A stretch of 64,000 nucleotides of DNA from Pseudomonas sp. (GTDB lineage: Bacteria > Pseudomonadota > Gammaproteobacteria > Pseudomonadales > Pseudomonadaceae), in assembly GCF_028293835.1 (NCBI RefSeq), contig NZ_JAQGNX010000064.1, forward strand, positions 1-64,000. Direction: 5' to 3'. The first letter of the stretch is position 1. Each line of letters starts with the position of its first letter. This document shows positions 2 to 18,690 of this stretch, piece by piece. Under the pieces are notes generated by a model. The model was given only the letters and a program-made list of their open reading frames with translations. It did not search any database and was not told the DNA's origin. Both the position numbers and the translations under genes were made by a program.

Positions 2-859
2 ATAGAACGCGATTTTTGGCAACTGGTCGGAGTGGGATTTCAGACCGAACTCTTAGGGCGTTTACTCGGGGCGATGGGGTTGCTCGGCCTATGTTGGCAT
101 GCAACGTTAAAGGACGTTCGTAAAAGCGCCAAACAATACCCCATACGTTTCAACCGCCAGCGGCGTGAAGTCAGTTTCGTCGATGGCGATACTCACGAAG
201 TACTAATCGTTCCATGGGAAAGCGTTGTGGCCTGGGTATCCCAATCAGAAATGGTCACCCAGTACGGCGCCGTCCAGATGTTCACGTTCGGCATGGGGCT
301 TGAAGATGAAAAGAACGACACCGTGCAATTCGTTCTCGCCAGTAAACCGAGTCAGGCCCATGCCATCGGTACGTGGGAAGCCATTCGTTCGTACATGGAG
401 CACGGCATTCCCAAGGATCGGGCCGGTGGCGCCGTAGTGTGGATGATAGGCCGTGAGTTAACCGAAGATGAATTGCGCCCATATGAAGGCCTCCACACTT
501 GGGATGTTGAGCGGCGAATCAAAGAGGACTTGGGTAGCTTGCATATGGACATCACCGACGAGCGCATGGCCGAAATAGGCCTGGAACCCCGCACCCGCTG
601 GCCACTACGCTGGTGGTACGTTCGCCGGGTGTTAACCTTTTGGAAAATGCCCTACATGCTTGCCGAATGGGGCCATAAAGCGGGTTCGCCTGTACTGCCC
701 GAAGCGGTGCAGCTATGGTCACAACCTATCCCAACCGAACAATGGGCCAAACCCAGCGCCGCGCTGCAAAAAGCCACGCAGACCGTTCAAGACGCCATGC
801 GTAAAAAAAAGATGCCGTTTGTCCATGCCTGCGAGTTGCTGGTTACAGATGTTAAATAA
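2..859 (+). CDS. DUF6708-like protein, 5' end outside the window
   Basis: The frame is open back to the first bases of the window, so the GTG at 32 in the ORF track is probably internal and the true start lies upstream. A hydrophobic segment (LLGRLLGAMGLLGLC) is followed by PIRFNRQRREVSF and a WESVVAW motif, a pattern I associate with DUF6708 proteins, which often sit beside type VI secretion effectors or other polymorphic-toxin loci in Pseudomonas. The rest is soluble and mixed alpha/beta, ending with a lysine-rich tail. No effector or toxin is visible downstream; the next gene is convergent. Function unknown; the family name is from memory and only moderately certain. Confidence 0.55.
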   Translation: MERDFWQLVGVGFQTELLGRLLGAMGLLGLCWHATLKDVRKSAKQYPIRFNRQRREVSFVDGDTHEVLIVPWESVVAWVSQSEMVTQYGAVQMFTFGMGLEDEKNDTVQFVLASKPSQAHAIGTWEAIRSYMEHGIPKDRAGGAVVWMIGRELTEDELRPYEGLHTWDVERRIKEDLGSLHMDITDERMAEIGLEPRTRWPLRWWYVRRVLTFWKMPYMLAEWGHKAGSPVLPEAVQLWSQPIPTEQWAKPSAALQKATQTVQDAMRKKKMPFVHACELLVTDVK

Positions 860-994: not shown

Positions 995-1660
995 CTAAAC
1001 CATCGCCGCCATGGCCACTGACGTCGCCGCCGTCCGGGTCTCAACCCCCAATTTGATGTAGATATGTTCTAAATGCTTATTCACCGTCCTGGGGCTAAGT
1101 TGCAAGATATCCGCAATGTCCTTGTTGGTTTTCCCACAAGAAACCCAGCGCAAGACTTCAATCTCCCGTTCGGTCAGTTTGAAGCGGGCGGACAATTTTT
1201 CGTTGGCCGGTTTGTTATCGAACCCTGTACTGGACAGCGATGGATTGCGCGCCGACTGCAGTATGCGAGCCGTGCGCAGGTGTGAGGCGACGCGGGCCAA
1301 TACTTCGTTGCATTCGATGGGTTTGGTCACGTAGTCGATGGCGCCGGCTTCGAAGCCTTTGACCACGTGTTCGCTGTCGGTTAATGCGGTCATGAACAGC
1401 ACCGGGATGGCGGCGGTGTCGGGCTGGGATTTAATCTGCCGACAGGTCTCGAAACCATCGAGTCCGGGCATCAGTGCATCGAGCAGTATCAAGTCCGGGC
1501 GGCGGCGCTGGATGCGGTTTAACGCGCTGATGCCGTCCAGCGCGACCAGCACCAGGTAGCCGGCGTCTTCCAACGCATCGGAGAGCAGCGCAAGGTTTTC
1601 CGGCGTGTCGTCGACAATGAGAATCACGCCCTTTTCAGCGTACGGAATCAGAGCGTTCAT
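995..1660 (-). CDS. Response regulator, receiver plus LuxR/NarL-type HTH
   Basis: This 221-residue protein has an N-terminal receiver domain (VDD near 17-18, predicted phosphoacceptor Asp61 in LILLDALMPG, conserved Lys in VTKPIE) and a C-terminal LuxR/NarL helix-turn-helix (LTEREIEVLRWVSCGKTNKDIA, residues about 162-212). It overlaps the end of the upstream kinase gene by 26 bases and has a strong Shine-Dalgarno (AAGGAGG), so the two are co-transcribed and translationally coupled. The kinase is its probable partner, with activation of the divergent amide/urea transporter genes as the likely output. The TACGTCA dyads at 5199-5239 are candidate binding sites. The regulated target is inferred from position. 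Confidence 0.9.
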   Translation of the reverse strand: MNALIPYAEKGVILIVDDTPENLALLSDALEDAGYLVLVALDGISALNRIQRRRPDLILLDALMPGLDGFETCRQIKSQPDTAAIPVLFMTALTDSEHVVKGFEAGAIDYVTKPIECNEVLARVASHLRTARILQSARNPSLSSTGFDNKPANEKLSARFKLTEREIEVLRWVSCGKTNKDIADILQLSPRTVNKHLEHIYIKLGVETRTAATSVAMAAMV

Positions 1661-4600
1661 TGAGCGCCTCCTTTAGCTTGAAACTGAGTTCATCCAGGCG
1701 AAACCCTTTGGCTAGGGCGCGCATGTCGGCTACGAAGCTGGCGCTGGTTATGCTGTGGCGCTCATTTCTGTCGAGTTTGGTTTGAATCCCGCGCACGTAA
1801 CCAAGGCCGCAGAGTTCATACAGCTCCTCAAGGTCCGCTCGGGGCGGCAATACCCATGGGGTTTTGCTCAGGGTTTCGATGCGCAGACGACGGACCCAAT
1901 GCAATTGCAGGTGGCGCTGAATCAGGTCCAATAGTTGCGGAAAATGCACCGGCTTGACCAGATAGTCGTTACAGATCGGCGGTGTGGGTTGCTCCTTGTC
2001 GTCGGTCAGCGGATTGGCGTTGGCCGAAATGACAATGATCGGCGCCAGCGACGCCGCGTTGCGACGAATCAAGCGGCTGGTCTCCCAGCCATCCATGTCC
2101 GGCATGGACAGGTCCATGAGGATCAAATCCGGGTGCAGTAATGAGACCTGACGAATCGCCTCCTGACCATTGGCCGCTTGCGCCACTTCGAAGCCCAAGG
2201 GCACCAACATGCCGCTGATGATGTTGCGGTGTTCGATGTGGTCGTCCACCACCAGAATCAAACGGCGGTGTCCTTCATAGGCAATGATGTCGTGATCGCT
2301 GTGCACCACGGCTTTTGGCACCCGCACCTCGGATAAAAACAGCTTCACTTGAAACTGCGTGCCTTTGCCTGGCTCGCTGGTAACGGACAATGCGCCGCCC
2401 ATCAATGCGGTCAACATTCGGGTGATGGTCAGGCCCAGGCCGACGCCGTTGTCCTGGCGCACCAGACCGCCGCGTTCGAAGGGTTGAAAGATCAGTTCGA
2501 TCTGCTCTGGCGGGATGCCGATGCCAGTGTCGATGATGTCGAAGATCACTGTCTCCCGGCGATAGCTGACCCGTAGGCTCACCTCGCCGCTGTCGGTGAA
2601 GTTCACTGCGTTGCCCAGCAGGTTGATGAGGATTTGCCGCACACGTTTCTCATCGCCGCGCACTACGCCTGGCATCCGCCCGATGACCTCAAGGCGAAAG
2701 CCCAGGCCCTTGCTGCGGGCGGTGGGTTCGAACATCCGCTCCAGGTCGTGAATGAACTCCTGAAAGAGAATTTCCGAAGGCTCCAGCCGTAGTTTGCCGG
2801 CCTCGATTTTGGCCACGTCCAACAAGCCATCGATGAGGGACAACAGGTGCGAACTGCTACGGCGGATGGTCGCCAATACGTCTTGTTGGGCGAAGGGGGT
2901 GGTCGCGTCCCGTTGCAGAATTTGCGTGAACCCCATGATGCTGTTTAGCGGGGTGCGAAGTTCGTGGGAGAGGCCGGTGACGTAGCGACTTTTCGCCGCG
3001 TTGGCGGCTTCCGAGGCCTCTTTGGCTTTTTGCAAGGCTTGGTCGGTTTTGTAGTGGGCGTCGATTTCCTGCATGAGCAAGGCGGTTTGGCGATCCGATT
3101 CTTCCAGCGCCACCCGGCGACTTTCCCGGGTCAATACCACCCACCATGCCAGGATAGCGGCGAATACGCACAGGGTGAAAAACGCCTTGATGAACGCCAC
3201 CCATAAGGTCTGGTGGACCGCTGGCGATTGCTGCAACAGGCCGTGGGATACTTGACTGAAAATCAGTGCCAGCGCCCCGGACAGCATCAATACCAACACG
3301 GTCAGCAGGCCAAGATAATGCGCCAGCCGTGAGTGCAAATACGTCTGCACCAACCGGGGGAAAAACCGGCTGACCACGTCTTCAAACTGCATCGACAACC
3401 GCGCCCGGGGTTTGCATTGGTCGGCGCAACGGGCGTCCAGCGAGCAACACAATGAACAGATCGGCGAGCCGTAGGCCGGACAATAAGCCATGTCCGGGGT
3501 CTCGAACGCGTTGCTGCACAAGCCGCAGGTCAGCGTGGCCTGCGGGCCTTGGGGGTAGAGCTGCAACGGATCGCTGCGCCGAGCGATGTAATAACGCCCC
3601 TTGGTAAGCCAGGCGATCAGCGGCGCAACGATCAGCGCGGTGATCAACGAGATCATCGGTGAGGCGGCTTCGGCAAGGTCGCCAAACACCCCAAAGTGCG
3701 CGAGCACCGACAACAGTGAGGCGAAAAACATCGCGCCGACCCCCACCGGGTTGATGTCGTACAGGTGCGCGCGTTTGAACTCGATGTAGCCCGGCGACAG
3801 GCCCAGCGGTTTATTGATCACCAGGTCGGCCACCAACGCGCCGATCCAGGCAATTGCCACATTGGCGTACAGCCCCAGTACTTGCTCGATGGCATCGAAG
3901 ACCCCCAGCTCCATCAACACCAGAGCGATGGCGACGTTGAAAACCAGCCACACCACCCGGCCGGGATGACTGTGAGTAACGCGGGCAAAGAAGTTTGACC
4001 ACGCCAATGACCCGGCATAGGCATTGGTCACGTTGATTTTCATTTGGGAAATGATCACGAACAGCATCATCGCGGTCAGCGCCCATTCCGGGGAGCTGAA
4101 CACGTATCGGAACGCCACCAGGTACATCTGCGTCGGTTCTACCGCGCGCTCGATGGGCACTTCGTGTTGCAGGGCGAGGAATGCCAGGAACGCACCGCCG
4201 AGGATTTTCAGGGCGCCGGGGATGATCCAGCCTGGACCGGCCATCAGCAACGCGGCCCACCAGCGGTTGCGATTGCGCCGGGTTTTTTCCGGGAGGAAGC
4301 GCAAGTAATCCACCTGCTCGCCAATTTGCGTCACTAACGACAAGGCCACGCTGAATCCTGCGCCAAAAAATAGCAGATTGAAGGTGCCGCCTTCACCTTC
4401 ACGCCCGGAGAAGCTGCCCAGTTGCATCAGTGCATCGGGGTTTTTCCAGATCACAAACAGGTAAGGCAGGACCAACAGCACCAGCCACAACGGCTGGGTC
4501 CACATCTGTAATCGACTGATCAGCGTGATGCCGTAGGCCGCCAATGGAATGACAATGATCGAGCACAGCACGTAGGCCAAGGCAATCGGGATGTGGAAAT

Positions 4601-5036
4601 ACAGCTCCAGGGCCAAAGCCATGATCGCTGCTTCCAGGGCAAAAAACAGGAAGGTGAAGCTGGCGTAGATCAGCGAGGTAATGGTCGAGCCGATGTAGCC
4701 GAAACCGGCGCCGCGGGTGAGTAAGTCCATGTCTACGCCATAGCGGGCGGCGTAGTAGCTAATGGGCAAGCCGGTGAAAAAAATCACCACGGCTGCGGCA
4801 AGGATCGCCCAAAAGGTATTGGTAAAGCCGTAACTCATGACCAGCGCGCCGCCGATGGCCTCCAGCGCAAGGAACGAAACCGCGCCAGCGGCGGTGTTGG
4901 CGATGCGAAATTCCGACCATTTTCGAAACGATTTCGGGGTGAAGCGCAGGGCGTAATCTTCCATCGTCTCGTCGGCGACCAGGCTGTTGTAGTCGCGGCG
5001 GACCTTGACGATACGTTGGGAACTGGAAGGGCGCAC
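1635..5036 (-). CDS. NCS1 permease fused to a hybrid sensor histidine kinase
   Basis: An 1133-residue fusion. Residues about 1-480 form an NCS1 (cytosine/allantoin permease) transporter-like domain with about twelve hydrophobic segments, preceded by the NCS1-type RRDYNSLVADETMEDYALRFTP. Then come an eight-cysteine cluster (about 499-545), two more membrane segments, a short coiled coil, HisKA (SHELRTPLNSI, His691), HATPase_c (NLLGNAVNFT, DTGIGIPPEQ, GVGLGL) and a receiver domain (Asp975 in LILMDLSMPDMDG). I chose the GTG at 5036 because AGGAA lies 8 bases upstream; the ORF-track TTG at 5072 adds 12 cysteine/serine-rich residues with no clear ribosome site. The permease part probably senses or imports the ligand, by analogy with CbrA, whose transporter domain is of a different family (SLC5). 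Partner: the overlapping response regulator. Confidence 0.9.
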   Translation of the reverse strand: MRPSSSQRIVKVRRDYNSLVADETMEDYALRFTPKSFRKWSEFRIANTAAGAVSFLALEAIGGALVMSYGFTNTFWAILAAAVVIFFTGLPISYYAARYGVDMDLLTRGAGFGYIGSTITSLIYASFTFLFFALEAAIMALALELYFHIPIALAYVLCSIIVIPLAAYGITLISRLQMWTQPLWLVLLVLPYLFVIWKNPDALMQLGSFSGREGEGGTFNLLFFGAGFSVALSLVTQIGEQVDYLRFLPEKTRRNRNRWWAALLMAGPGWIIPGALKILGGAFLAFLALQHEVPIERAVEPTQMYLVAFRYVFSSPEWALTAMMLFVIISQMKINVTNAYAGSLAWSNFFARVTHSHPGRVVWLVFNVAIALVLMELGVFDAIEQVLGLYANVAIAWIGALVADLVINKPLGLSPGYIEFKRAHLYDINPVGVGAMFFASLLSVLAHFGVFGDLAEAASPMISLITALIVAPLIAWLTKGRYYIARRSDPLQLYPQGPQATLTCGLCSNAFETPDMAYCPAYGSPICSLCCSLDARCADQCKPRARLSMQFEDVVSRFFPRLVQTYLHSRLAHYLGLLTVLVLMLSGALALIFSQVSHGLLQQSPAVHQTLWVAFIKAFFTLCVFAAILAWWVVLTRESRRVALEESDRQTALLMQEIDAHYKTDQALQKAKEASEAANAAKSRYVTGLSHELRTPLNSIMGFTQILQRDATTPFAQQDVLATIRRSSSHLLSLIDGLLDVAKIEAGKLRLEPSEILFQEFIHDLERMFEPTARSKGLGFRLEVIGRMPGVVRGDEKRVRQILINLLGNAVNFTDSGEVSLRVSYRRETVIFDIIDTGIGIPPEQIELIFQPFERGGLVRQDNGVGLGLTITRMLTALMGGALSVTSEPGKGTQFQVKLFLSEVRVPKAVVHSDHDIIAYEGHRRLILVVDDHIEHRNIISGMLVPLGFEVAQAANGQEAIRQVSLLHPDLILMDLSMPDMDGWETSRLIRRNAASLAPIIVISANANPLTDDKEQPTPPICNDYLVKPVHFPQLLDLIQRHLQLHWVRRLRIETLSKTPWVLPPRADLEELYELCGLGYVRGIQTKLDRNERHSITSASFVADMRALAKGFRLDELSFKLKEALNERSDSVR

Positions 5037-5336
5037 GAATGAGTTTCCTGAGGAGGAACAAGCGGAGCACAAGGTTTCAACAGCAACTTAGCAACTTCCA
5101 TGCCGGTCAACCGGCTGGGTCAGGCCTGTTACGCGCTCGCGAATCAAGGATCGGCTGGGTGACGCCTGCGCCAGCATGCGCCGCGGCGCGCTTTTTGGCC
5201 CTACGTCAAATGACGTAGGGCGGTACGTCAAGCTGCGTATATTCCCTTTGCGCCGTCCCGCTCATGCTTGTTTCAACCTCGCTGCACCGTCTTTTCAGAC
5301 GTGTTTGTAGCGAATCATAAGCACAGGAGCGGGAAC
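5037..5336. promoter_or_regulatory. Divergent control region between kinase and transporter operons
   Basis: This 300-base gap separates two divergent transcription units. It holds a perfect 10-2-10 inverted repeat (CCCTACGTCA-AA-TGACGTAGGG, 5199-5220) followed at once by a weaker dyad (TACGTCA-AGC-TGCGTA, 5224-5239). A TATATT box at 5238-5243 faces the transporter genes, with no recognisable -35 box in front of it, which fits an activator-dependent promoter. A GC-rich palindromic stretch (GCGCCGCGGCGCGC) lies near 5179-5192. The dyads are of a size typical for NarL/FixJ-type regulators. That the adjacent response regulator binds here is an inference. Confidence 0.6.
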
Positions 5337-6581
5337 ATGGATTCACGACTGACAGGCGCGAAACGCTTTCTTCCTCGCCGATTGGCATTGGGCGCCGCTG
5401 CGCTCTCGCTGATTGCGGCTGGGGTGTTCAGCCAAGGGGTGATGGCCGATGACGCCAACACCACCGGGCTGGCGGTGACCCCGACGGAAGTGACAGTCGG
5501 TCAGTTGCACTCGGCAACCGGCACCATGGCTATTTCAGAAACCGGTTCGATCCAGGCCGAGCGTCTGGCAATTGACCAGATCAACGCCTCGGGCGGCATC
5601 CTCGGTCGGCAAATCAAGGTGGTTCAGGAAGACGGCGCATCCGATTGGCCCACCTTCGCGGAAAAAGCCAAGAAGCTCCTGGTGGGCGACAAGGTCGCCG
5701 CGGTATTCGGTTGCTGGACGTCCGCGTCGCGCAAAGCGGTGTTGCCGGTGTTCGAGAAAGAAAACGGCCTGCTTTACTACCCGACCTTTTACGAAGGGCT
5801 GGAGCAGTCGAAAAACGTGATTTACACCGGCCAGGAAGCGACGCAGCAAATCCTCGCCAGCCTGGACTGGATTGCTAAAACCAAAGGCGCCAAGACGTTT
5901 TACTTGATCGGTTCGGACTACATCTGGCCGCGCACCTCGATGAAGATCGCCCGTAAACACATCGAAAACGTCCTGCACGGCACCGTGGTTGGCGAAGATT
6001 ACTACCCGCTGGGCAACACCCAATTCGGTTCGCTGATCAATAAAGTCAAACTGAAAAAGCCTGACGTGGTATTCGCCGCAGTGGTCGGTGGTTCAAACGT
6101 GGCGTTCTACAAGCAACTCAAAGCGGCCGGTGTGGATTCCACCAAGCAAACCCTGCTGACGTTGTCGGTGACCGAGGATGAATTGGTCGGTATCGGCGGC
6201 GAAAACATGGCGGGTTTCTACGCTTCCATGAAGTACTTCCAGAGCCTCGACAACCCGGCCAACAAAGCGTTCGTCGCGGCGTTCAAAGCCAAATACGGCA
6301 AGGATTCGGTCATGGGTGACGTGACCCAGGCTGCTTACCTCGGCCCATGGTTGTGGAAAGCCGCCGTGGAAAAAGCCGGTAGCTTCGACGTCGACAAAGT
6401 CGTCGCGGCATCGCCTGGCATCGAACTGACCAATGCCCCGGAAGGCTACGTGAAAGTTCACGAAAACCACCACCTGTGGAGCAAGTCACGCATCGGCGAA
6501 GTCCAGCCTGACGGCCAGTTCAAAGTGATCTACGAGTCCGGCCTGATTGAGCCGAACCCGTTTCCTAAAGGCTATCAGTAA
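5337..6581 (+). CDS. urtA: Urea/amide-type ABC transporter substrate-binding protein
   Basis: Periplasmic receptor of a branched-chain-amino-acid-type (HAAT family) ABC transporter, 414 residues with an N-terminal Sec-type signal (KRFLPRRLALGAAALSLIAAGVFSQGVMAD). The motifs VGQLHSATGTMAISETG, DWPTFAEKAKKLL, VFGCWTSASRKAVLPVFE and NGLLYYPTFYEG are typical of the UrtA/FmdD/AmiC group that binds urea or short-chain amides. I chose the ATG at 5337, which has AGGAGCGGG upstream and puts the signal peptide at the N-terminus; the ORF-track start at 5268 adds 23 unlikely residues. It leads the transporter genes that end in formamidase, so formamide or a related amide is the likely ligand. The symbol reflects family membership and is not proof of urea transport. 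Confidence 0.87.
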   Translation: MDSRLTGAKRFLPRRLALGAAALSLIAAGVFSQGVMADDANTTGLAVTPTEVTVGQLHSATGTMAISETGSIQAERLAIDQINASGGILGRQIKVVQEDGASDWPTFAEKAKKLLVGDKVAAVFGCWTSASRKAVLPVFEKENGLLYYPTFYEGLEQSKNVIYTGQEATQQILASLDWIAKTKGAKTFYLIGSDYIWPRTSMKIARKHIENVLHGTVVGEDYYPLGNTQFGSLINKVKLKKPDVVFAAVVGGSNVAFYKQLKAAGVDSTKQTLLTLSVTEDELVGIGGENMAGFYASMKYFQSLDNPANKAFVAAFKAKYGKDSVMGDVTQAAYLGPWLWKAAVEKAGSFDVDKVVAASPGIELTNAPEGYVKVHENHHLWSKSRIGEVQPDGQFKVIYESGLIEPNPFPKGYQ

Positions 6582-6638
6582 CAGTTGAAGCGACCGCGGC
6601 CTCTTTGACGTCGCGCTGTCGTGCCTCAAACGCAAAAC

Positions 6639-6720
6639 CTGTAGGAGCCAACGTGTTGGCGAGGGGCTTGACGCGTTCAGTCTGGTAAGACGCCTCGCCA
6701 AAACGTTGGCCGCTACAGGT
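6639..6720. repeat. REPIN-type inverted repeat (GCCAACGTGTTGGC family), copy 1
   Basis: Left arm CCTGTAGGAGCCAACGTGTTGGCGAG and right arm CTCGCCAAAACGTTGGCCGCTACAGG enclose a spacer of about 30 bases. Related copies occur at 10336-10414, 11690-11768, 32427-32500 and 54206-54233. This copy lies between the binding-protein and first permease genes, where a hairpin could stabilise the upstream mRNA and set a higher level for the binding protein. That effect is inferred from similar transporter operons. Confidence 0.8.
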
Positions 6721-6754
6721 GGTTTGCATCAACCTTCACCTGGAGACCATCAAC

Positions 6755-7672
6755 ATGGAATGGCTATCGGAATTTGGTGCCATCGCGGCGATGCAGGGGT
6801 TCAACGGCCTTTCCGTGTTCTGCGTGCTGTTGCTGATGGCCCTGGGGCTGGCGATTATTTTCGGCCAGATGGGGGTGATCAATATGGCCCACGGTGAGTT
6901 TCTCACCATCGGCGCCTACACCACGTACGTCATGTCCAGTCTCACCACGCACTACCTGCCTTCAATGCAGCCTTACTACTTTTTCTTCGCCATCGCGCTG
7001 TCGTTCGTGGTGGCCGGTGCCATTGGTTGGCTGGTCGAGGCGGTGATGATCAGCCGCTTATACCACCGTCCGCTGGACACATTGCTCGCGACCTGGGGTC
7101 TGTCGTTGGTGATGCAACAAGCCTTCCGCTCGATCTTCGGCGCCCGGGAAGTCAGTGCGACGCCGCCGGAATGGCTGATGGGTGCGGTCAACGTCACCGA
7201 CACCATCGAAATTCCACGCAACGGCCTGTTCGTCATGGCCGTGACCATTCTCCTGACCGCGACCATTTTCTGGATGCTGTACCGCACCCGCTGGGGCCTG
7301 CAAGTTCGGGCCACGGTGCAAAACCGCATGATGAGCCGTGCCGTTGGCATTAACACCCGCAAGGTCGACCGCATGACTTTTGCCTTGGGTTGTGGCGTGG
7401 CCGGCGTTGCCGGTGCGGCGTTTACCACCATTGGCTCGACGGGGCCCACCGCTGGCTCGCTGTACATCGTCGACACGTTTTTAGTGGTGGTATTCGGCGG
7501 CGCGCAGAGCCTGTTCGGCACCATCGCTTCAGCGTTCGCCATCGCCCAGACACAGTCGATCTCCGAGTTTTTCATGAGCGGTTCGATGGCCAAGGTCCTG
7601 ACGTTGTCGGCGGTGATCCTGATTCTGATGATGCGCCCGCAAGGCCTGTTTTCCAGCAAAGTCCGCAAGTAG
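6755..7672 (+). CDS. urtB: UrtB-type ABC transporter permease (LivH family)
   Basis: Integral membrane subunit of the amide/urea-type importer, 305 residues with about eight hydrophobic segments. GLAIIFGQMGVINMAHGEFLTIGAY is the signature of LivH/UrtB permeases, and the C-terminal PQGLF is typical of the family. I chose the ATG at 6755, preceded by GGAGA; the track start at 6719 lies in the end of a REP element. It is separated from the binding-protein gene by the REPIN and followed 10 bases later by the second permease gene. It should pair with that protein in the inner membrane. Substrate is inferred from the fmdA neighbourhood. Confidence 0.88.
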   Translation: MEWLSEFGAIAAMQGFNGLSVFCVLLLMALGLAIIFGQMGVINMAHGEFLTIGAYTTYVMSSLTTHYLPSMQPYYFFFAIALSFVVAGAIGWLVEAVMISRLYHRPLDTLLATWGLSLVMQQAFRSIFGAREVSATPPEWLMGAVNVTDTIEIPRNGLFVMAVTILLTATIFWMLYRTRWGLQVRATVQNRMMSRAVGINTRKVDRMTFALGCGVAGVAGAAFTTIGSTGPTAGSLYIVDTFLVVVFGGAQSLFGTIASAFAIAQTQSISEFFMSGSMAKVLTLSAVILILMMRPQGLFSSKVRK

Positions 7673-7682
7673 AGGCAGCCAG

Positions 7683-8861
7683 ATGAAAGCGTTAAATAAC
7701 ATACTGGGCGGCAAGCAAGGGGTCATCGGCCTGCTGGTGCTTGCGCTGCTGATCCTGGTGGTATTCCCGTTGACCCTCGATGCCTTCCGTTTGGGCATGG
7801 TCGGCAAATACCTGACCTATGCGTTCGTCGCGGTTGGCCTGGTGTTGTGCTGGGGCTACGGCGGCATTCTCAGCCTGGGGCAGGGCGTGTTCTTTGGCCT
7901 TGGCGGCTATTGCATGGCGATGTTCCTCAAGCTCGAAGCCTCGGACCCCATCAGTACCAAAATCCAGTCGACGCCCGGTATTCCGGACTTTATGGACTGG
8001 AACCAGATCACTGAACTGCCGTGGCTGTGGGTGCCGTTTCACAGCTTCAGCTTCACCCTGATCGCAGTGGTTGTGCTACCGGTGCTGTTGGCGCTGATCA
8101 TTGGGTTGGCGATGTTCAAACGCCGTGTTGGCGATGTGTATTTCTCCATCGTCACCCAAGCCATCGCGCTGATACTGACGGTGCTGATCATTGGTCAACA
8201 AGGGCTGACCGGAGGCATCAACGGCATCACCGACCTGAAAACCCTGCTCGGCTGGGACATCCGCACCGATGGCGCCAAGCTGGCGTTGTACTTCATCAAT
8301 GCCGGGCTACTGTTCGGCTGCATCCTGATCGGCAAGTTCATCCTGGCCTCCAAGCTCGGCCGACTGCTGATGGCCATGCGCGACAAAGAAGAGCGGGTGC
8401 GGTTTTCCGGCTACGACGTCGCCAGTTTCAAAATCTTCGTGTATTGCGTGGCAGCGGCGTTTTCGGCCATCGGTGGTGCAATGTTCGCGTTGCAAGTGGG
8501 CTTTATGTCGCCGTCCTTCGTGGGCATCGTGCCCTCCATCGAGATGGTGATTTTCGCTGCAGTCGGCGGGCGCATGTCGCTGCTGGGTGCGGTGTACGGC
8601 TCGCTGCTGGTGAACTACGGCAAGACCTACTTTTCCGAGTCCTTTCCGGAGTTGTGGCTGTACTTGATGGGCGGATTGTTCATCGCCGTGGTCATGTATT
8701 TCCCAGACGGCCTCGCCGGTTTGTGGGAAAGCCACGGACGCGCTCGTTTAGACAAACTCCTCGGCAAACCTGCACCAGTCATCACCGCACCCGCCAAAGC
8801 CAAGGCCGTCGAAGCGCCTGCCGTCGTGCCTGTTGCTGAATCCCTGGAGACACAACCATGA
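7683..8861 (+). CDS. urtC: UrtC-type ABC transporter permease (LivM family)
   Basis: Second membrane subunit of the HAAT-type importer, 392 residues. LCWGYGGILSLGQGVFFGLGGYCMAMFL near the N-terminus is the LivM/UrtC signature. A UrtC-like insert (KIQSTPGIPDFMDWNQITELPWLWVPF) follows, then GLTGGINGITD and the coupling-loop region DKEERVRFSGYD. The C-terminus ends in an Ala/Pro/Val-rich tail after PDGLAGLW that may be disordered. The stop overlaps the next start (ATGA), which couples it to the ATPase gene. It should form a heterodimer with the preceding permease. Urea, formamide and other short amides are possible substrates. Confidence 0.88.
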   Translation: MKALNNILGGKQGVIGLLVLALLILVVFPLTLDAFRLGMVGKYLTYAFVAVGLVLCWGYGGILSLGQGVFFGLGGYCMAMFLKLEASDPISTKIQSTPGIPDFMDWNQITELPWLWVPFHSFSFTLIAVVVLPVLLALIIGLAMFKRRVGDVYFSIVTQAIALILTVLIIGQQGLTGGINGITDLKTLLGWDIRTDGAKLALYFINAGLLFGCILIGKFILASKLGRLLMAMRDKEERVRFSGYDVASFKIFVYCVAAAFSAIGGAMFALQVGFMSPSFVGIVPSIEMVIFAAVGGRMSLLGAVYGSLLVNYGKTYFSESFPELWLYLMGGLFIAVVMYFPDGLAGLWESHGRARLDKLLGKPAPVITAPAKAKAVEAPAVVPVAESLETQP

Positions 8862-9616
8862 CCGCCGTAGGCTTCCAAATGCCCAAACCGGTGTTAGCCA
8901 TAGAAGGCCTTACCGTGTCGTTCGACGGTTTCAAGGCAGTGGATGACCTCAACCTGTACATCGACCGCAATGAGGTGCGGGTGGTGATCGGGCCAAACGG
9001 TGCGGGAAAAACCACGGTGCTCGACCTGATCTGCGGCAAGACCCGCGCAACCAGCGGCAGCATTCAGTTCAACAACCGCGAACTGACCAAAATGCACGAG
9101 TACGACATTGTCCGCGCCGGGGTCGGCCGCAAGTTTCAGACCCCGTCGATCTACGACAACTTGTCGGTGTTCGAGAATCTGGAAATGTCCTTCCCCAAGG
9201 GCCGCAGCGTGCTGGGCGCACTGTTCTTCAAACGCACCGCCGAGGTGGTTGACCGAGTGCGGGAGGTGGCGGGTGACATTTTCCTCGGCGAGCTTCTGGA
9301 ACAGCAAGCCGGGCTGTTATCCCACGGCCAAAAGCAGTGGCTAGAGATCGGCATGCTGCTGATGCAAGACCCCGAATTGTTGATGCTCGATGAGCCGGTG
9401 GCGGGCATGAGCGTGAGCGAACGTGCGCAAACGGCAGACTTGCTCAAGCGCATCAGTCAAGGCCGCTCGGTGTTGGTGATCGAACATGACATGGAATTTG
9501 TGAAAAGCATCGCCCACAAAGTCACGGTTTTGCACCAGGGCAAAGTATTGGCCGAAGGCAGCATGGAATCAGTGCAGAACAACCCAAAAGTCATTGAAGT
9601 CTATCTGGGCCACTAA
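8858..9616 (+). CDS. urtD: UrtD-type ABC transporter ATP-binding protein (LivG family)
   Basis: Cytoplasmic ATPase, 252 residues. Visible motifs are Walker A GPNGAGKT, the Q-loop region VGRKFQTPSIYDNLSVFENL, the signature-like LSHGQKQWLEIGM (a degenerate LSGGQ, common in UrtD), Walker B LLMLDEP and the switch His in VIEHDMEFV. The start overlaps the end of the permease gene (ATGA), so it belongs to the same translationally coupled operon. It should pair with the following UrtE-type ATPase to power uptake. Confidence 0.9.
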   Translation: MTAVGFQMPKPVLAIEGLTVSFDGFKAVDDLNLYIDRNEVRVVIGPNGAGKTTVLDLICGKTRATSGSIQFNNRELTKMHEYDIVRAGVGRKFQTPSIYDNLSVFENLEMSFPKGRSVLGALFFKRTAEVVDRVREVAGDIFLGELLEQQAGLLSHGQKQWLEIGMLLMQDPELLMLDEPVAGMSVSERAQTADLLKRISQGRSVLVIEHDMEFVKSIAHKVTVLHQGKVLAEGSMESVQNNPKVIEVYLGH

Positions 9617-10335: not shown

Positions 10336-10414
10336 CTGTAAGAGCCAACGTGTTGGCGAGCTTTTTTGCGGTGTACCCATTGCATCGCCCCGCCAACACG
10401 TTGGCTCCTACAGG
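10336..10414. repeat. REPIN-type inverted repeat, copy 2
   Basis: Arms CTGTAAGAGCCAACGTGTTGGCGAG and CGCCAACACGTTGGCTCCTACAG flank about 30 bases. It sits between the ATPase gene and fmdA. It may separate mRNA stability of the transporter part from that of the formamidase part without ending transcription, since no T-tract follows. Confidence 0.8.
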
Positions 10415-14847: not shown

Positions 14848-15103
14848 GAGATTATCGAAGCATCATCCATTCATTAACGTCGATTGCATTGTCACAACGA
14901 TCATTTTGACAACACGTTGCCTCTTGCGCAAAGCCGCTTGTAGGGTTGCTTAAACGTTTCAATACCCTTCGTTTTACTCTTCCTTCTGCTAGCCAATACT
15001 TTTTTTGTGCAAATTCTGGCCTTTTGTTCAATTACGCAGATGGCGTTAGAACTATATGGCTGCGCCATAGACGAATACATATGGATTGAAACGGAACCGC
15101 GCG
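14848..15103. promoter_or_regulatory. Upstream region of the ACIII-caa3 operon
   Basis: About 255 bases without a gene, before the first act gene. A TTGACA hexamer lies at 14906-14911, but no good -10 box follows at 17 bases, so the promoter position is uncertain. A pyrimidine-rich segment (CCCTTCGTTTTACTCTTCCTTC) follows. No inverted repeat of operator type was obvious. Confidence 0.35.
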
Positions 15104-15760
15104 ATGACGCAGGTATTCAACCGTTCTGCCGACACTTGGCTGCGCCTGGGGTTGCTCGGCGTAATGGTCGGACTTATTGGGGGGCTCGCTGTGGCCTTGA
15201 TCCTGGATCGCTCAGACTATCGGACTGACCGCGGCTGGGTAGTTGATCAGCCAGTTCCCTTTAGCCATGCCCACCACGCCGGTGAGTTGGGCATCGATTG
15301 TCGTTATTGTCACGGGTCGGTGGAAACATCCGCCGAAGCGGGTTTGCCGCCGACGTATACCTGCATGACCTGCCATTCGCAAATTTGGTCCGACAGCGAT
15401 GTGCTCGAACCCTTGCGTCGAAGTTTGCGTGAACGCATTCCGTTGCACTGGCAGCGGGTCGCCAAGCTGCCCGATTACGTGTACTTCCATCATGCCGTGC
15501 ATGTGCAGGCTGGGGTGGCCTGCGTCAGTTGCCATGGGCCGGTGGATCGCATGCCACTGTTGAGCAAGGCCGAACCTTTGAACATGGGACAATGCCTGGC
15601 CTGTCATCGAGACCCCGCACCGAATCTGCGCCCCCGTGAGCAGGTCACCCAGATGGACTGGTCCACCGATGAAGACCGGCGGCAAATGGGTCAGCGGTTG
15701 ATGAAGGCTTATCACATCAATCCGGTTGGGTTGACTGATTGCGGGGTCTGTCACCGATGA
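15104..15760 (+). CDS. actA: Alternative complex III, pentaheme cytochrome c subunit ActA
   Basis: A 218-residue membrane-anchored multiheme cytochrome. One N-terminal membrane segment (LGLLGVMVGLIGGLAVALIL) is followed by five CxxCH haem c sites: CRYCH, CMTCH, CVSCH, CLACH and CGVCH, the number known for ActA. It should face the periplasm and pass electrons within the quinol:electron acceptor oxidoreductase. I prefer ATG 15104 to the TTG at 15086 in the track; neither has a strong ribosome site. The stop overlaps the actB start by 4 bases, opening a run of eleven overlapping or near-abutting genes. Confidence 0.9.
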   Translation: MTQVFNRSADTWLRLGLLGVMVGLIGGLAVALILDRSDYRTDRGWVVDQPVPFSHAHHAGELGIDCRYCHGSVETSAEAGLPPTYTCMTCHSQIWSDSDVLEPLRRSLRERIPLHWQRVAKLPDYVYFHHAVHVQAGVACVSCHGPVDRMPLLSKAEPLNMGQCLACHRDPAPNLRPREQVTQMDWSTDEDRRQMGQRLMKAYHINPVGLTDCGVCHR

Positions 15761-18690
15761 GCGAAGCGCTGGATTTCGCCGCCCTGCGCCAGCGGCTTGC
15801 CGGACTCGGTGGGCAGGCCTACTGGCGAGGCCTGGACGCCCTGGCGCAAACTGAAGAAGCGCAAGCGTTGTTCGAAGCCGAATTTCCCGGCATAGCGCCG
15901 TTGCTGGACCGCCGACGATTTCTGCAATTAATGGCCGCCTCGTTGGCCATGGCCGGGCTCGCCGCGTGCGGTAGAACGCCTGAGGAAGCGGTTGCCCGGA
16001 TTGAACAGCCGGAACAGATGATTCCGGGGAAGGCCTTGTGGTACGCCACCGCGATCCCGTTTGCTGGCTATGCGCAGCCAGTGTTGGGTAAAACTCGCGC
16101 AGGGCGTCCAATCAAGCTTGAGGGTAATCCGGAACATCCATTGTCGGCAGGCGCCTGCGATGGGTTTACCCAAGCTGCAATCCTTCAGTTGTATGACCCG
16201 GATCGTTCCCAGGCGCCACGCTTCAAAGGCCGGGAAACGGCGTGGACGAATGTGCAAACCGAACTGGTGGAACTGGCATCGGCTTTGGATGCCAAGGGGG
16301 GCCGCGGCCTGCACATCGCCTGCGGGGCCAGCAGCTCGCCGACCCTGGCCCGGCAATTGCGCGAATTGCGCCAGCGATGGCCGCAGGTGGCGTTTTATCA
16401 CGCTGAACCCTTTGCTGACGGCGCACGGGTCGATGCTACTCGCCAGGCGTTCGGCCAACCGTTGATGCCACGCCTGCACCTGGAACAGGCTGAAGTGATC
16501 ATCAGTCTGGATGACGATTTTCTCGGCCCTGGCCCGCTGCAAACGGTCCAGCAGCGCGGTTGGTCCCATCGGCGCAGGGCGGCCGCTTCCGGCGATGGCA
16601 GTGCCCTGCTGTATGTGGCGCAAAGCGTACCCGGTTTGACCGGCGCGGCTGCCACCGAATGCTTGCGGCTAGCCCCGTCGCGCATGGCTGACCTGACGCT
16701 GGCCTTGGCGCGGGCGCTGGATCAGGCGCCACCTGGGGAGTCGCGGCTCGACGCCGCGCAACAGGCGTGGGCGCAGCGTGCGGTCAGCGCGCTCAAGGCT
16801 CATCCAAAGCGCGGCCTCATCAGTGCCGGCAGCCAAACGTCGGTGGATGTCCAGGCGGCGGTGGCCGCCCTCAACCAGCATATTCAATCCCCGGCTGTGG
16901 ATTACCAGGCGCCCGTACTGCTGGGTTACGCCAACGATGATCGCTGGCTGACCCTCGGTGATCTGGCGCAGCAATTGCTCTCGGGCGATGTCGAATGCCT
17001 GATGTTTTTCGACTGCAATCCACTGTACAGCGCACCGGCGGAATGGGCCTTGCTCGAACGGCTTCAGCAGGTGCCGTTGCGTCTGCACGTCGGGCTTTAT
17101 TACGATGAAACCGCCGCGCAGTGCCATTGGCATTTACCCATGAACCATCCGTTGGACGGCTGGAGCGACGCCCGGGGCAGTGACGGCAGCGCCTGCATTG
17201 TGCAACCGCTGATAGAACCCATGTACGCCACCCGAACCCTGCATCAAATCATCGGGTTGCTGCTGACGGGTAACGAAACCGATGCCTTGAAAGCACTCCA
17301 CGACAGTTGGAAGCAGTTGGACGCCGGGCAATGGAATCAAGCGTTATCTCAAGGCTGGATTGATGGGGCGTCATCTGCCAAACCAGTGCCCGTAGCCCAG
17401 GCGGTAAACCTGCAACTGCCGGTGCAGGCTGAGGGCTTGGAGGTGCTGGTAAAACCTGACGCCTGTATCTGGGATGGGCGTTTTGCCAACCTCGGCTGGT
17501 TACAGGAATTGCCCAAGCCCATCAGTAAACTGACCTGGAGCAATGTCATTGGCGTCTCGCCAGCACTGGCCGAACGCATGGGCTTGAGCAACGGCGACGC
17601 ACTGCGTATTGAGCTGCCGGGGCAATCGATCACAGGCCCGGCCTGGATCGAGCCGGGGCAAGCCGATGAGGTGGTTGCGCTGTACAGCGGGTATGGCCGC
17701 AGCCGTGCCGGCCATGTGGGCAACGGCTTAGGCTATTGGGTGCGGCCGCTGGCACCGGGGTCGTCGTCAACGGTGGCGGTGCAAAAGGTTGAGGGTCGCT
17801 TTGCCTTGGCCAGCACCCAGACCCACCATCGCCTCGCGCCAGACGACACGCCGCCGATCCTCAGTGTGCCGCGCCGAGCCGCAGTGCTACCAATGAAGGA
17901 AGCGTCCGCCACCCTGTATCACTCTGCCGTCACCACCCAGGAGAAAGGCGACGGGCCGCAATGGGGCATGGTCATCGACCTGGACCTGTGCACCGGCTGC
18001 AACGCCTGTGTGGTGGCTTGCCAGGCGGAGAACAATATTGCCGTGGTGGGTGCCGAACAGGTGGCCCATGGGCGCACCATGCACTGGTTACGCATCGACC
18101 ACTATTACCAGGGCGACATCGAGGCGCCACGCTCCAAATTTCAGCCGCTGCCCTGCATGCATTGCGAGCAAGCACCCTGTGAAACCGGTTGCCCGGTCAA
18201 CGCTACCGTGCACGGGAGCGATGGCCTGAATCAGATGGTCTATAACCGCTGTATTGGCACCCGCACCTGTGCCTCTTACTGCCCGTACAAAGTCCGGCGC
18301 TTTAATTGGTTCGACTGGAACGCTAATGCCGCGCCGTCGATTCAGGCGCAACGCAACCCTGACGTTACCGTGCGCGCTCGCGGGGTGATGGAAAAGTGCA
18401 CCTATTGCATCCAGCGCATCAGCGCCGCCCGCATAGACGCGCGGATCGCTGCCGGGCAGGGCGGCGATGACGCCCCGAACCCGGCCTACGAAGTCACCAC
18501 GGCCTGCCAACAAACCTGCCCGAGCCAGGCCATTCAGTTCGGCAATATTGCCAGCCCAACCAGTGCCGTAAGCCAGTCCCGACGATCCCCACGTCATTAC
18601 GCATTACTTGAGGACTTGAACACCCGGCCGCGCACGACTTATCTGGCGCAGATCGACGACCGCGATCCGGACCTTGACCATGGTCAATGA
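15757..18690 (+). CDS. actB: Alternative complex III, iron-sulfur subunit ActB
   Basis: A 977-residue fusion of a molybdopterin-oxidoreductase-like domain and a ferredoxin-type domain. A twin-arginine signal (RRRFLQLMAASLAMAGLAACG) sits unusually far in, near residues 52-71, as is common for ActB. The middle resembles MopB proteins but, as in other ActB proteins, is expected to lack the cofactor. From about residue 745 come four cysteine clusters for Fe-S centres: CTGCNACVVACQ, CMHCEQAPCETGCP, CIGTRTCASYCP and CTYC with CQQTCP. Start ATG 15757 overlaps actA (ATGA). Periplasmic electron-transfer core of the complex. Confidence 0.92.
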   Translation: MSEALDFAALRQRLAGLGGQAYWRGLDALAQTEEAQALFEAEFPGIAPLLDRRRFLQLMAASLAMAGLAACGRTPEEAVARIEQPEQMIPGKALWYATAIPFAGYAQPVLGKTRAGRPIKLEGNPEHPLSAGACDGFTQAAILQLYDPDRSQAPRFKGRETAWTNVQTELVELASALDAKGGRGLHIACGASSSPTLARQLRELRQRWPQVAFYHAEPFADGARVDATRQAFGQPLMPRLHLEQAEVIISLDDDFLGPGPLQTVQQRGWSHRRRAAASGDGSALLYVAQSVPGLTGAAATECLRLAPSRMADLTLALARALDQAPPGESRLDAAQQAWAQRAVSALKAHPKRGLISAGSQTSVDVQAAVAALNQHIQSPAVDYQAPVLLGYANDDRWLTLGDLAQQLLSGDVECLMFFDCNPLYSAPAEWALLERLQQVPLRLHVGLYYDETAAQCHWHLPMNHPLDGWSDARGSDGSACIVQPLIEPMYATRTLHQIIGLLLTGNETDALKALHDSWKQLDAGQWNQALSQGWIDGASSAKPVPVAQAVNLQLPVQAEGLEVLVKPDACIWDGRFANLGWLQELPKPISKLTWSNVIGVSPALAERMGLSNGDALRIELPGQSITGPAWIEPGQADEVVALYSGYGRSRAGHVGNGLGYWVRPLAPGSSSTVAVQKVEGRFALASTQTHHRLAPDDTPPILSVPRRAAVLPMKEASATLYHSAVTTQEKGDGPQWGMVIDLDLCTGCNACVVACQAENNIAVVGAEQVAHGRTMHWLRIDHYYQGDIEAPRSKFQPLPCMHCEQAPCETGCPVNATVHGSDGLNQMVYNRCIGTRTCASYCPYKVRRFNWFDWNANAAPSIQAQRNPDVTVRARGVMEKCTYCIQRISAARIDARIAAGQGGDDAPNPAYEVTTACQQTCPSQAIQFGNIASPTSAVSQSRRSPRHYALLEDLNTRPRTTYLAQIDDRDPDLDHGQ

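What the first reader, a model, noticed from the sequence alone, without database searches (positions are those of the whole stretch)
1635..5036. Permease-kinase fusion: NCS1 transporter as the input of a hybrid histidine kinase
One reading frame joins a complete NCS1 nucleobase/allantoin-type permease domain to HisKA, HATPase and receiver domains, with a second response regulator overlapping its 3' end. Transporter-kinase fusions are known from CbrA-like proteins, but with SLC5-type domains; an NCS1 input is less familiar. Its divergent neighbour is a five-gene amide/urea-type importer plus formamidase, so the permease part probably senses an amide, urea or a breakdown product of purine or hydantoin compounds.
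Basis: partly seen in the sequence, partly recalled or inferred. Interest (0 to 1): 0.68.

Follow-up and report, generated by a model that had tools for sequence, protein, structure and literature searches.

The report
Permease-fused kinase controlling formamide/urea genes
A bacterial sensor protein made of a whole nucleobase-type membrane transporter joined to a signalling kinase sits beside, and almost certainly switches on, genes for taking up and breaking down formamide or urea; the fusion is common in Proteobacteria but I found no published description of it.

Summary
Window 1635-5036 (-) encodes a 1133-residue protein: a complete 12-helix NCS1 permease, an eight-cysteine ribbon, two further membrane helices, then HisKA, HATPase and receiver domains. 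A NarL/LuxR-type response regulator (995-1660) overlaps its end. Pfam does not recognise the permease, but its fold does: the five best PDB matches are CodB and Mhp1. A free-standing permease 56% identical over the permease-plus-ribbon part shows the sensor half is an intact transporter module.

The family occurs in about 13% of sampled Pseudomonadota genomes, nearly always beside urtABCDE-fmdA or, after several independent switches, urease. In 200 Pseudomonas genomes, kinase and FmdA occur in exactly the same 43. A 16-bp operator, TACGTCA-N2-TGACGTA, lies between kinase and urtA. It stays at a near-fixed distance from urtA and fmdA, and follows them when they move, in one genome 1.1 Mb away. 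In the window's genome the sites occur only here.

Best reading: a 'transceptor' kinase that senses formamide, urea or similar small amides and, through its regulator, activates their import and hydrolysis. The operator link is strong; the ligand is inferred. It works like CbrA/CrbS kinases but uses NCS1 instead of SLC5. New variant of a known kind.

The parts
1635..5036 (-). NCS1-permease / hybrid histidine kinase fusion, 1133 aa
   Evidence: open frame with RBS; Pfam kinase domains; NCS1 fold
3597..5036 (-). residues 1-480: 12-helix NCS1 permease domain
   Evidence: AF2 model and Foldseek to CodB/Mhp1; PRK11017 hit; stand-alone twin 56% identical
3411..3536 (-). residues 501-542: cysteine ribbon with eight Cys (504, 507, 519, 527, 530, 531, 537, 541)
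   Evidence: all eight Cys invariant in 89 of 89 kinases; also in the stand-alone permease
3132..3329 (-). residues 570-635: two extra membrane helices leading into the coiled coil
   Evidence: hydrophobic segments in sequence; helices 570-600 and 605-679 in the model
2796..2996 (-). HisKA, phospho-His 691
   Evidence: Pfam PF00512; His invariant
2334..2657 (-). HATPase_c
   Evidence: Pfam PF02518
1920..2258 (-). receiver domain, Asp 975
   Evidence: Pfam PF00072
995..1660 (-). response regulator, REC + LuxR/GerE HTH, 221 aa, overlaps kinase 3' end by 26 bp
   Evidence: Pfam; homologue directly after the kinase in nearly all loci with enough flank
5202..5217 (.). operator 1, perfect 7-2-7 inverted repeat TACGTCA-AA-TGACGTA
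5224..5239 (.). operator 2, TACGTCA-AG-CTGCGTA, 22 bp from operator 1
5337..6581 (+). urtA-type amide/urea binding protein; likely ATG at 5337 after AGGAGC
   Evidence: TIGR03407, 535 bits; sequence
6719..7672 (+). urtB permease
   Evidence: TIGR03409
7683..8861 (+). urtC permease
   Evidence: TIGR03408
8858..9616 (+). urtD ATPase
   Evidence: TIGR03411
9594..10316 (+). urtE ATPase
   Evidence: TIGR03410
10445..11680 (+). fmdA formamidase
   Evidence: NF045496, 759 bits; PF03069
11806..12153 (+). FmdB-family zinc-ribbon protein (RPWMISH)
   Evidence: NF053663, TIGR02605

Best explanation
This is a transporter-type receptor kinase ('transceptor'). A complete NCS1 permease of an amide/urea-specific branch is the sensor of a hybrid histidine kinase. 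Binding, and perhaps passage, of formamide, urea or a similar small amide changes the permease conformation; this passes through the cysteine ribbon, the extra helix pair and the coiled coil to HisKA. Phosphate reaches the adjacent NarL/LuxR-type regulator, directly or via the receiver. Phosphorylated regulator dimers bind 7-2-7 sites TACGTCA-N2-TGACGTA ahead of urtABCDE-fmdA and, in many relatives, also ahead of fmdA. They then activate uptake and hydrolysis of the amide to ammonia. Shown by sequence and comparison: architecture, NCS1 fold, intact permease module, constant regulator partner, genome co-occurrence with FmdA, and operator tracking of target promoters including in trans. Inferred: ligand identity, activation rather than repression, direct binding by this regulator, the phosphate route, and whether the domain still transports.
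For: Fold and module; stand-alone twin 56% identical over 534 aa, ending at the ribbon. Context: FmdA in 104 of about 143 loci and urease in 19. The identical 43 of 200 Pseudomonas genomes carry kinase and FmdA. Operator: strict pattern upstream of the kinase in 159 of 201 loci against 1 after shuffling, 130 of 161 after removing duplicates against 1.1 expected. The only exact matches in the 5.7-Mb genome are these two sites. In 59 Pseudomonas-type loci the site's distance to urtA varies with sd 20 bp, to the kinase with sd 74 bp. A second site lies 82-130 bp before fmdA in 43 of 97 loci. When urtA or fmdA is displaced, the site moves with it, including unlinked fmdA in G120 and G048. In A. 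baumannii the site lies between kinase and a stand-alone permease twin. Ligand: formamidase and urease exchange places at least six times on the kinase tree, while pocket-region residues T128, E135, Q237, E240, Q241, K333, N335 and N338 stay invariant. The TM6 aromatic that stacks nucleobases in CodB (Phe204; PMC9379551) is aliphatic here, which fits a small non-aromatic ligand.
Against: No experiment shows ligand binding, kinase activity or DNA binding. Seven loci where urease is directly divergent (L094, L157-L159, L182, L185, L191) lack the operator in this form near the kinase. FmdA is not within reach in some intact Pseudomonas loci (L101, L105, L112). The A. baumannii locus carries no amide or urea enzyme nearby. 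Kinase and FmdA co-occurrence is partly linkage, since most copies are adjacent. Mapping of TM8 residues onto CodB is uncertain.
Confidence: 0.68

Rival explanations
1. Same regulon, different signal: the NCS1 domain no longer reads the amide itself but a general cue such as ammonium or nitrogen status, or works as a flux sensor coupled to the Urt transporter.
For: Both formamidase and urease release ammonia, so a product signal would also explain the swapping of the two contexts.
Against: An intact permease module with invariant pocket-region residues is kept; the stand-alone twins lie beside urease or fmdA/amidase and, in Methylovirgula, where no complete Urt ABC operon is annotated, which points to the amide as their substrate.
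Confidence: 0.14
2. The cysteine ribbon is the real sensor, for zinc, nickel or redox state; the permease part is a membrane anchor or metal-coupled transporter.
For: Eight Cys invariant in 89 of 89 kinases; urease needs nickel and FmdA-type amidases are metal enzymes (general knowledge).
Against: The ribbon is also present on stand-alone permeases without any kinase, so it belongs to the permease family; pocket-region residues are as strictly kept as the cysteines.
Confidence: 0.08
3. A purine, allantoin or hydantoin breakdown product is sensed, as in most characterised NCS1 proteins, and urt-fmd handles its downstream amide.
For: NCS1 proteins classically carry nucleobases, allantoin and hydantoins; distant relative L209 lies beside hydantoinase.
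Against: The recurrent neighbours found are amidases and urease, and no purine or hydantoin genes appear in the annotated loci of this clade; the TM6 stacking aromatic is missing.
Confidence: 0.06

Closest known systems
SLC5/STAC histidine kinases CbrA, CrbS, RpuS (PMC7096432, PMC5715377, PMC9100948, PMC13022988)
   Same: Whole transporter as N-terminal sensor of a histidine kinase; CrbS and RpuS are hybrid kinases with a LuxR-family regulator and control a nutrient-use gene set
   Different: Transporter is NCS1, not SLC5; Cys ribbon plus two helices where STAC (and PAS) would be; amide/urea regulon
Ks-Amt5 ammonium transporter-kinase (PMC5764959)
   Same: Transporter domain fused to a kinase, nitrogen-source sensing
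   Different: Unrelated transporter fold (Amt)
NCS1 transporters CodB and Mhp1 (PMC9379551)
   Same: 12-helix NCS1 fold
   Different: No kinase; different pocket; nucleobase or hydantoin ligands; sequence too far for Pfam PF02133
MetT metformin transporter (PMC13390362)
   Same: NCS1 protein with a straight-chain, non-heterocyclic nitrogen substrate
   Different: Stand-alone transporter; relation to this branch not tested
urtABCDE-fmdA amide locus of Bradyrhizobium and Pseudomonas veronii (PMC3098086, PMC13209695)
   Same: Same transporter and formamidase genes; a non-urea amide substrate was already suggested; P. veronii Yu15, which has such a locus, grows on formamide and acetamide
   Different: In the passages read, those papers name no kinase; the second notes that amiC and amiR are absent from the locus

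Membership tests
NCS1 (nucleobase-cation-symport-1) family | NCS1 version of the LeuT fold, 12 helices | tested here: met
   AF2 model; top five PDB matches are CodB and Mhp1
NCS1 (nucleobase-cation-symport-1) family | sequence profile PF02133 | tested here: not met
   no hit at E 10; met only by relatives 23-27% identical; CodB model PRK11017 hits residues 26-191, far below its cut-off. Placed in NCS1 by fold and intermediates, as a divergent branch
NCS1 (nucleobase-cation-symport-1) family | aromatic sandwich, TM3 Trp and TM6 Phe/Trp | tested here: not met
   TM3 position is Phe131, TM6 position is Leu234 or Val235
NCS1 (nucleobase-cation-symport-1) family | Na2 sodium site | tested here: inconclusive
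   G51 and T337 kept, T278 becomes V336, N275 becomes K333; TM8 alignment uncertain
NCS1 (nucleobase-cation-symport-1) family | transport activity | not testable with these tools
   needs uptake assay
SLC5/STAC histidine kinases | SLC5 domain | tested here: not met
   no SSF hit in Pfam; SLC5 structures rank after NCS1 in Foldseek
SLC5/STAC histidine kinases | STAC domain between transporter and kinase | tested here: inconclusive
   no Pfam domain in residues 1-635; the region is a Cys ribbon and two hydrophobic helices; no STAC profile was used
Hybrid HisKA two-component system with NarL/LuxR regulator | HisKA with phospho-His, HATPase, receiver Asp, adjacent REC-HTH regulator | tested here: met
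   regulator homologue after the kinase
Hybrid HisKA two-component system with NarL/LuxR regulator | phosphotransfer and DNA binding | not testable with these tools
   needs biochemistry; a 7-2-7 site is conserved ahead of targets
Urea ABC transporter UrtABCDE | TIGR03407-03411 profiles | tested here: met
   all five above cut-off; substrate not tested, and a distinct type with about 40% identical UrtA lies beside urease in other genomes
Formamidase FmdA | NF045496 above cut-off | tested here: met
   759 bits, cut-off 500

The most novel reading that the evidence does not exclude
A previously undescribed class of transceptor kinases: an intact NCS1-type amide/urea permease, with its own cysteine ribbon, was fused to a hybrid kinase. 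It became the dedicated receptor for formamide and urea across Proteobacteria, and in some bacteria (A. baumannii) still controls the stand-alone twin of its own sensor domain.
Probability: 0.55. Interest if true: 0.7.

Novelty: new variant of a known kind. Interest (0 to 1): 0.62.

Why it matters
Few transporter-kinase fusions are characterised, and the ones found in the literature searched use SLC5 or Amt domains. This one adds a third transporter family as a receptor, in a large and very regular set of genomes, with an operator that makes it directly testable. It proposes the missing regulator for a widespread formamide/urea locus. The same kinase gene sits beside the 'urea transport system' on a pKPN-type Klebsiella pneumoniae plasmid (L204), the kind reported for the ST307 lineage (PMC5506382, PMC13060141). 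There, UrtABCDE is of the formamidase-linked type, so formamide rather than urea may be its substrate. Stand-alone twins of the sensor domain offer a clean test of how a transporter becomes a receptor.

Tried and rejected
Pfam and single-sequence PDB searches did not recognise the permease; profile and fold comparison were needed. A profile search of PDB sequences found no transporter, only kinases and weak zinc-finger matches. Literature searches for NCS1-kinase fusions and for a kinase controlling fmdA/urtA found none; only open-licence PMC papers were searched. Search for a regulon outside the locus in the own genome: one-mismatch sites are fewer than in the control (52 matches in all against 103), so none is claimed. 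A Glu/Asp difference at residue 300 between formamidase- and urease-linked kinases was tested for independent origin and is not significant. A weaker 7-2-7 repeat was sought in loci without the strict operator; none was found near the kinase. The palindrome in genome G045, which lacks the kinase, lies inside open reading frames and is taken as chance.
Full report
OBSERVATION. The frame at 1635-5036 (-) is real and intact. The likely start is the GTG at 5036 behind AGGA, giving 1133 residues. Pfam finds HisKA, HATPase_c and a receiver. The next gene, 995-1660 (-), is a REC-LuxR regulator whose start overlaps the kinase end. Divergently lie urtABCDE, fmdA and a small FmdB-type zinc-ribbon gene, all supported by NCBIfam models.

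IS THE N-TERMINUS NCS1? Pfam PF02133 gives no hit at all, so this had to be tested. The CodB model PRK11017 matches residues 26-191 with E=5e-6. Stand-alone relatives 23-27% identical and aligned over the full permease do pass PF02133. An AlphaFold2 model built from 50 relatives has pLDDT 87.5 and pTM 0.86, and its five best PDB matches are CodB and Mhp1, ahead of SLC5 and other LeuT-fold proteins. It is a divergent NCS1 branch. After helix 12 come an eight-cysteine ribbon (504-541), two hydrophobic helices and a long helix into HisKA.

THE SENSOR HALF IS A WHOLE TRANSPORTER MODULE. On a Methylovirgula plasmid the kinase and regulator are followed by a stand-alone permease that is 56% identical to kinase residues 10-542, has all eight cysteines and ends there. 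fmdA and an amidase are nearby and no complete Urt operon is annotated. In Acinetobacter johnsonii a 44-46% identical stand-alone permease lies beside ureABC/DEFG. In A. baumannii the kinase and regulator are divergent from such a permease. The ribbon therefore belongs to the permease family, and the kinase was probably built by adding a two-helix hybrid kinase to it.

DISTRIBUTION AND CONTEXT. High-scoring matches occur in 43 of 200 Pseudomonas genomes and 52 of 399 genomes drawn across the phylum (my count; alpha-, beta- and gammaproteobacteria are represented). They also occur on 518 plasmids, 342 of the 532 matching plasmid records being Klebsiella. Of about 143 loci with flanks, 104 carry FmdA, 19 urease, and most of the rest Urt genes or truncated contigs. 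In the same 200 Pseudomonas genomes FmdA occurs in exactly the 43 that have the kinase. On the kinase tree the formamidase/urease label changes at least six times (quick tree, SH-aLRT support). In loci such as L094 the urease operon takes the place that urtA holds elsewhere.

OPERATOR. Between kinase and urtA lie TACGTCAAATGACGTA (5202-5217) and TACGTCAAGCTGCGTA (5224-5239), 7-2-7 inverted repeats of the NarL type, 22 bp apart. A strict version occurs upstream of the kinase in 159 of 201 loci (1 after shuffling), or 130 of 161 after removing duplicates (1.1 expected). In the own genome exact matches exist only here, and in 200 Pseudomonas genomes the perfect repeat occurs in 38, once each, 37 of them kinase-positive. 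The site's distance to urtA is nearly constant while that to the kinase varies from 68 to 442 bp. In 43 of 97 loci a second site lies 82-130 bp ahead of fmdA. Where genes are displaced, the site stays with urtA (L187, L188, L190, L193, L194, L205) or fmdA (L166, L167, L176). In genomes G120 and G048, with fmdA far from the kinase or on another contig, fmdA has its own site. In A. baumannii a site lies between kinase and permease twin. This links the regulator to amide and urea uptake and hydrolysis genes, partly independently of linkage. The window's own fmdA has no second site.

LIGAND. This is inference. Formamide and urea are both small planar H2N-C=O compounds, and the sensor is used with either enzyme. 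Residues of the expected pocket region (T128, E135, Q237, E240, Q241, K333, N335, N338) are invariant in 89 kinases from both contexts. CodB stacks cytosine between Trp108 and Phe204 (PMC9379551); here the TM3 position is Phe131 but the TM6 position is aliphatic, which argues against a nucleobase. An NCS1 protein with a non-ring substrate, metformin, has been reported (PMC13390362). Whether the domain still transports, and whether it uses sodium, cannot be told.

WHAT IT RESEMBLES. It works like CbrA/CrbS/RpuS (PMC7096432, PMC5715377, PMC9100948, PMC13022988) and, more loosely, Ks-Amt5 (PMC5764959). It is not a member of the SLC5/STAC family: the transporter is NCS1, and a Cys ribbon with two helices stands where STAC would be. 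No paper in the searched library describes an NCS1-kinase fusion. A paper on Pseudomonas veronii Yu15 describes an amiE-fmdA-fmdB-urtABCDE locus, growth on formamide and acetamide, and absence of amiC/amiR there (PMC13209695); an earlier one suggested an amide other than urea for the Bradyrhizobium version (PMC3098086). Klebsiella ST307 papers call the plasmid version a urea system and do not mention a histidine kinase (PMC5506382, PMC13060141; text searched).

OPEN POINTS. Seven urease-divergent loci lack the operator in this form; they may use another site or only housekeeping control. The role of the eight cysteines is unknown. The phosphate route in a hybrid kinase without a recognisable HPt domain is unresolved.

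Noticed in passing
L204 (Klebsiella pneumoniae plasmid NZ_OM489433.1, 5900-15372): The 'urea transport system' of pKPN-type plasmids is the formamidase-linked Urt type with an AmiF-like formamidase, the NCS1 kinase and the operator TACGTCATTTAACGTA; formamide may be the real substrate.
   Followed up: partly
L230 (Acinetobacter baumannii, 3322-9554): Kinase-regulator pair divergent from a stand-alone copy of its own sensor permease, with one operator-like site between; no amide or urea enzyme nearby.
   Followed up: partly
L094, L157, L158, L159, L182, L185, L191: Kinase directly divergent from a urease operon but without the 7-2-7 operator in recognisable form.
   Followed up: partly
L189, L196, L208: Short kinases (about 875 aa) without the C-terminal receiver, beside fmdA and an AmiS/UreI-type channel gene; in L208 a separate regulator gene follows.
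   Followed up: partly
L101:2266-4604: Behind urtABCDE, in the place of fmdA, an Amidohydro_3 enzyme and an ABM-domain protein; possibly another amide hydrolase for the same importer.
   Followed up: no
window 10338-10412: Inverted repeat around GCCAACGTGTTGGCG ... GCCAACACGTTGGC in the urtE-fmdA gap, where many relatives have the second operator; looks like a REP-type or terminator element.
   Followed up: no
window 15086-18690: Multiheme cytochrome (c3/c7-like Pfam hits) followed by a 983-aa frame.
   Followed up: no
window 32-859: DUF6708 protein (weak hit, below cut-off).
   Followed up: no
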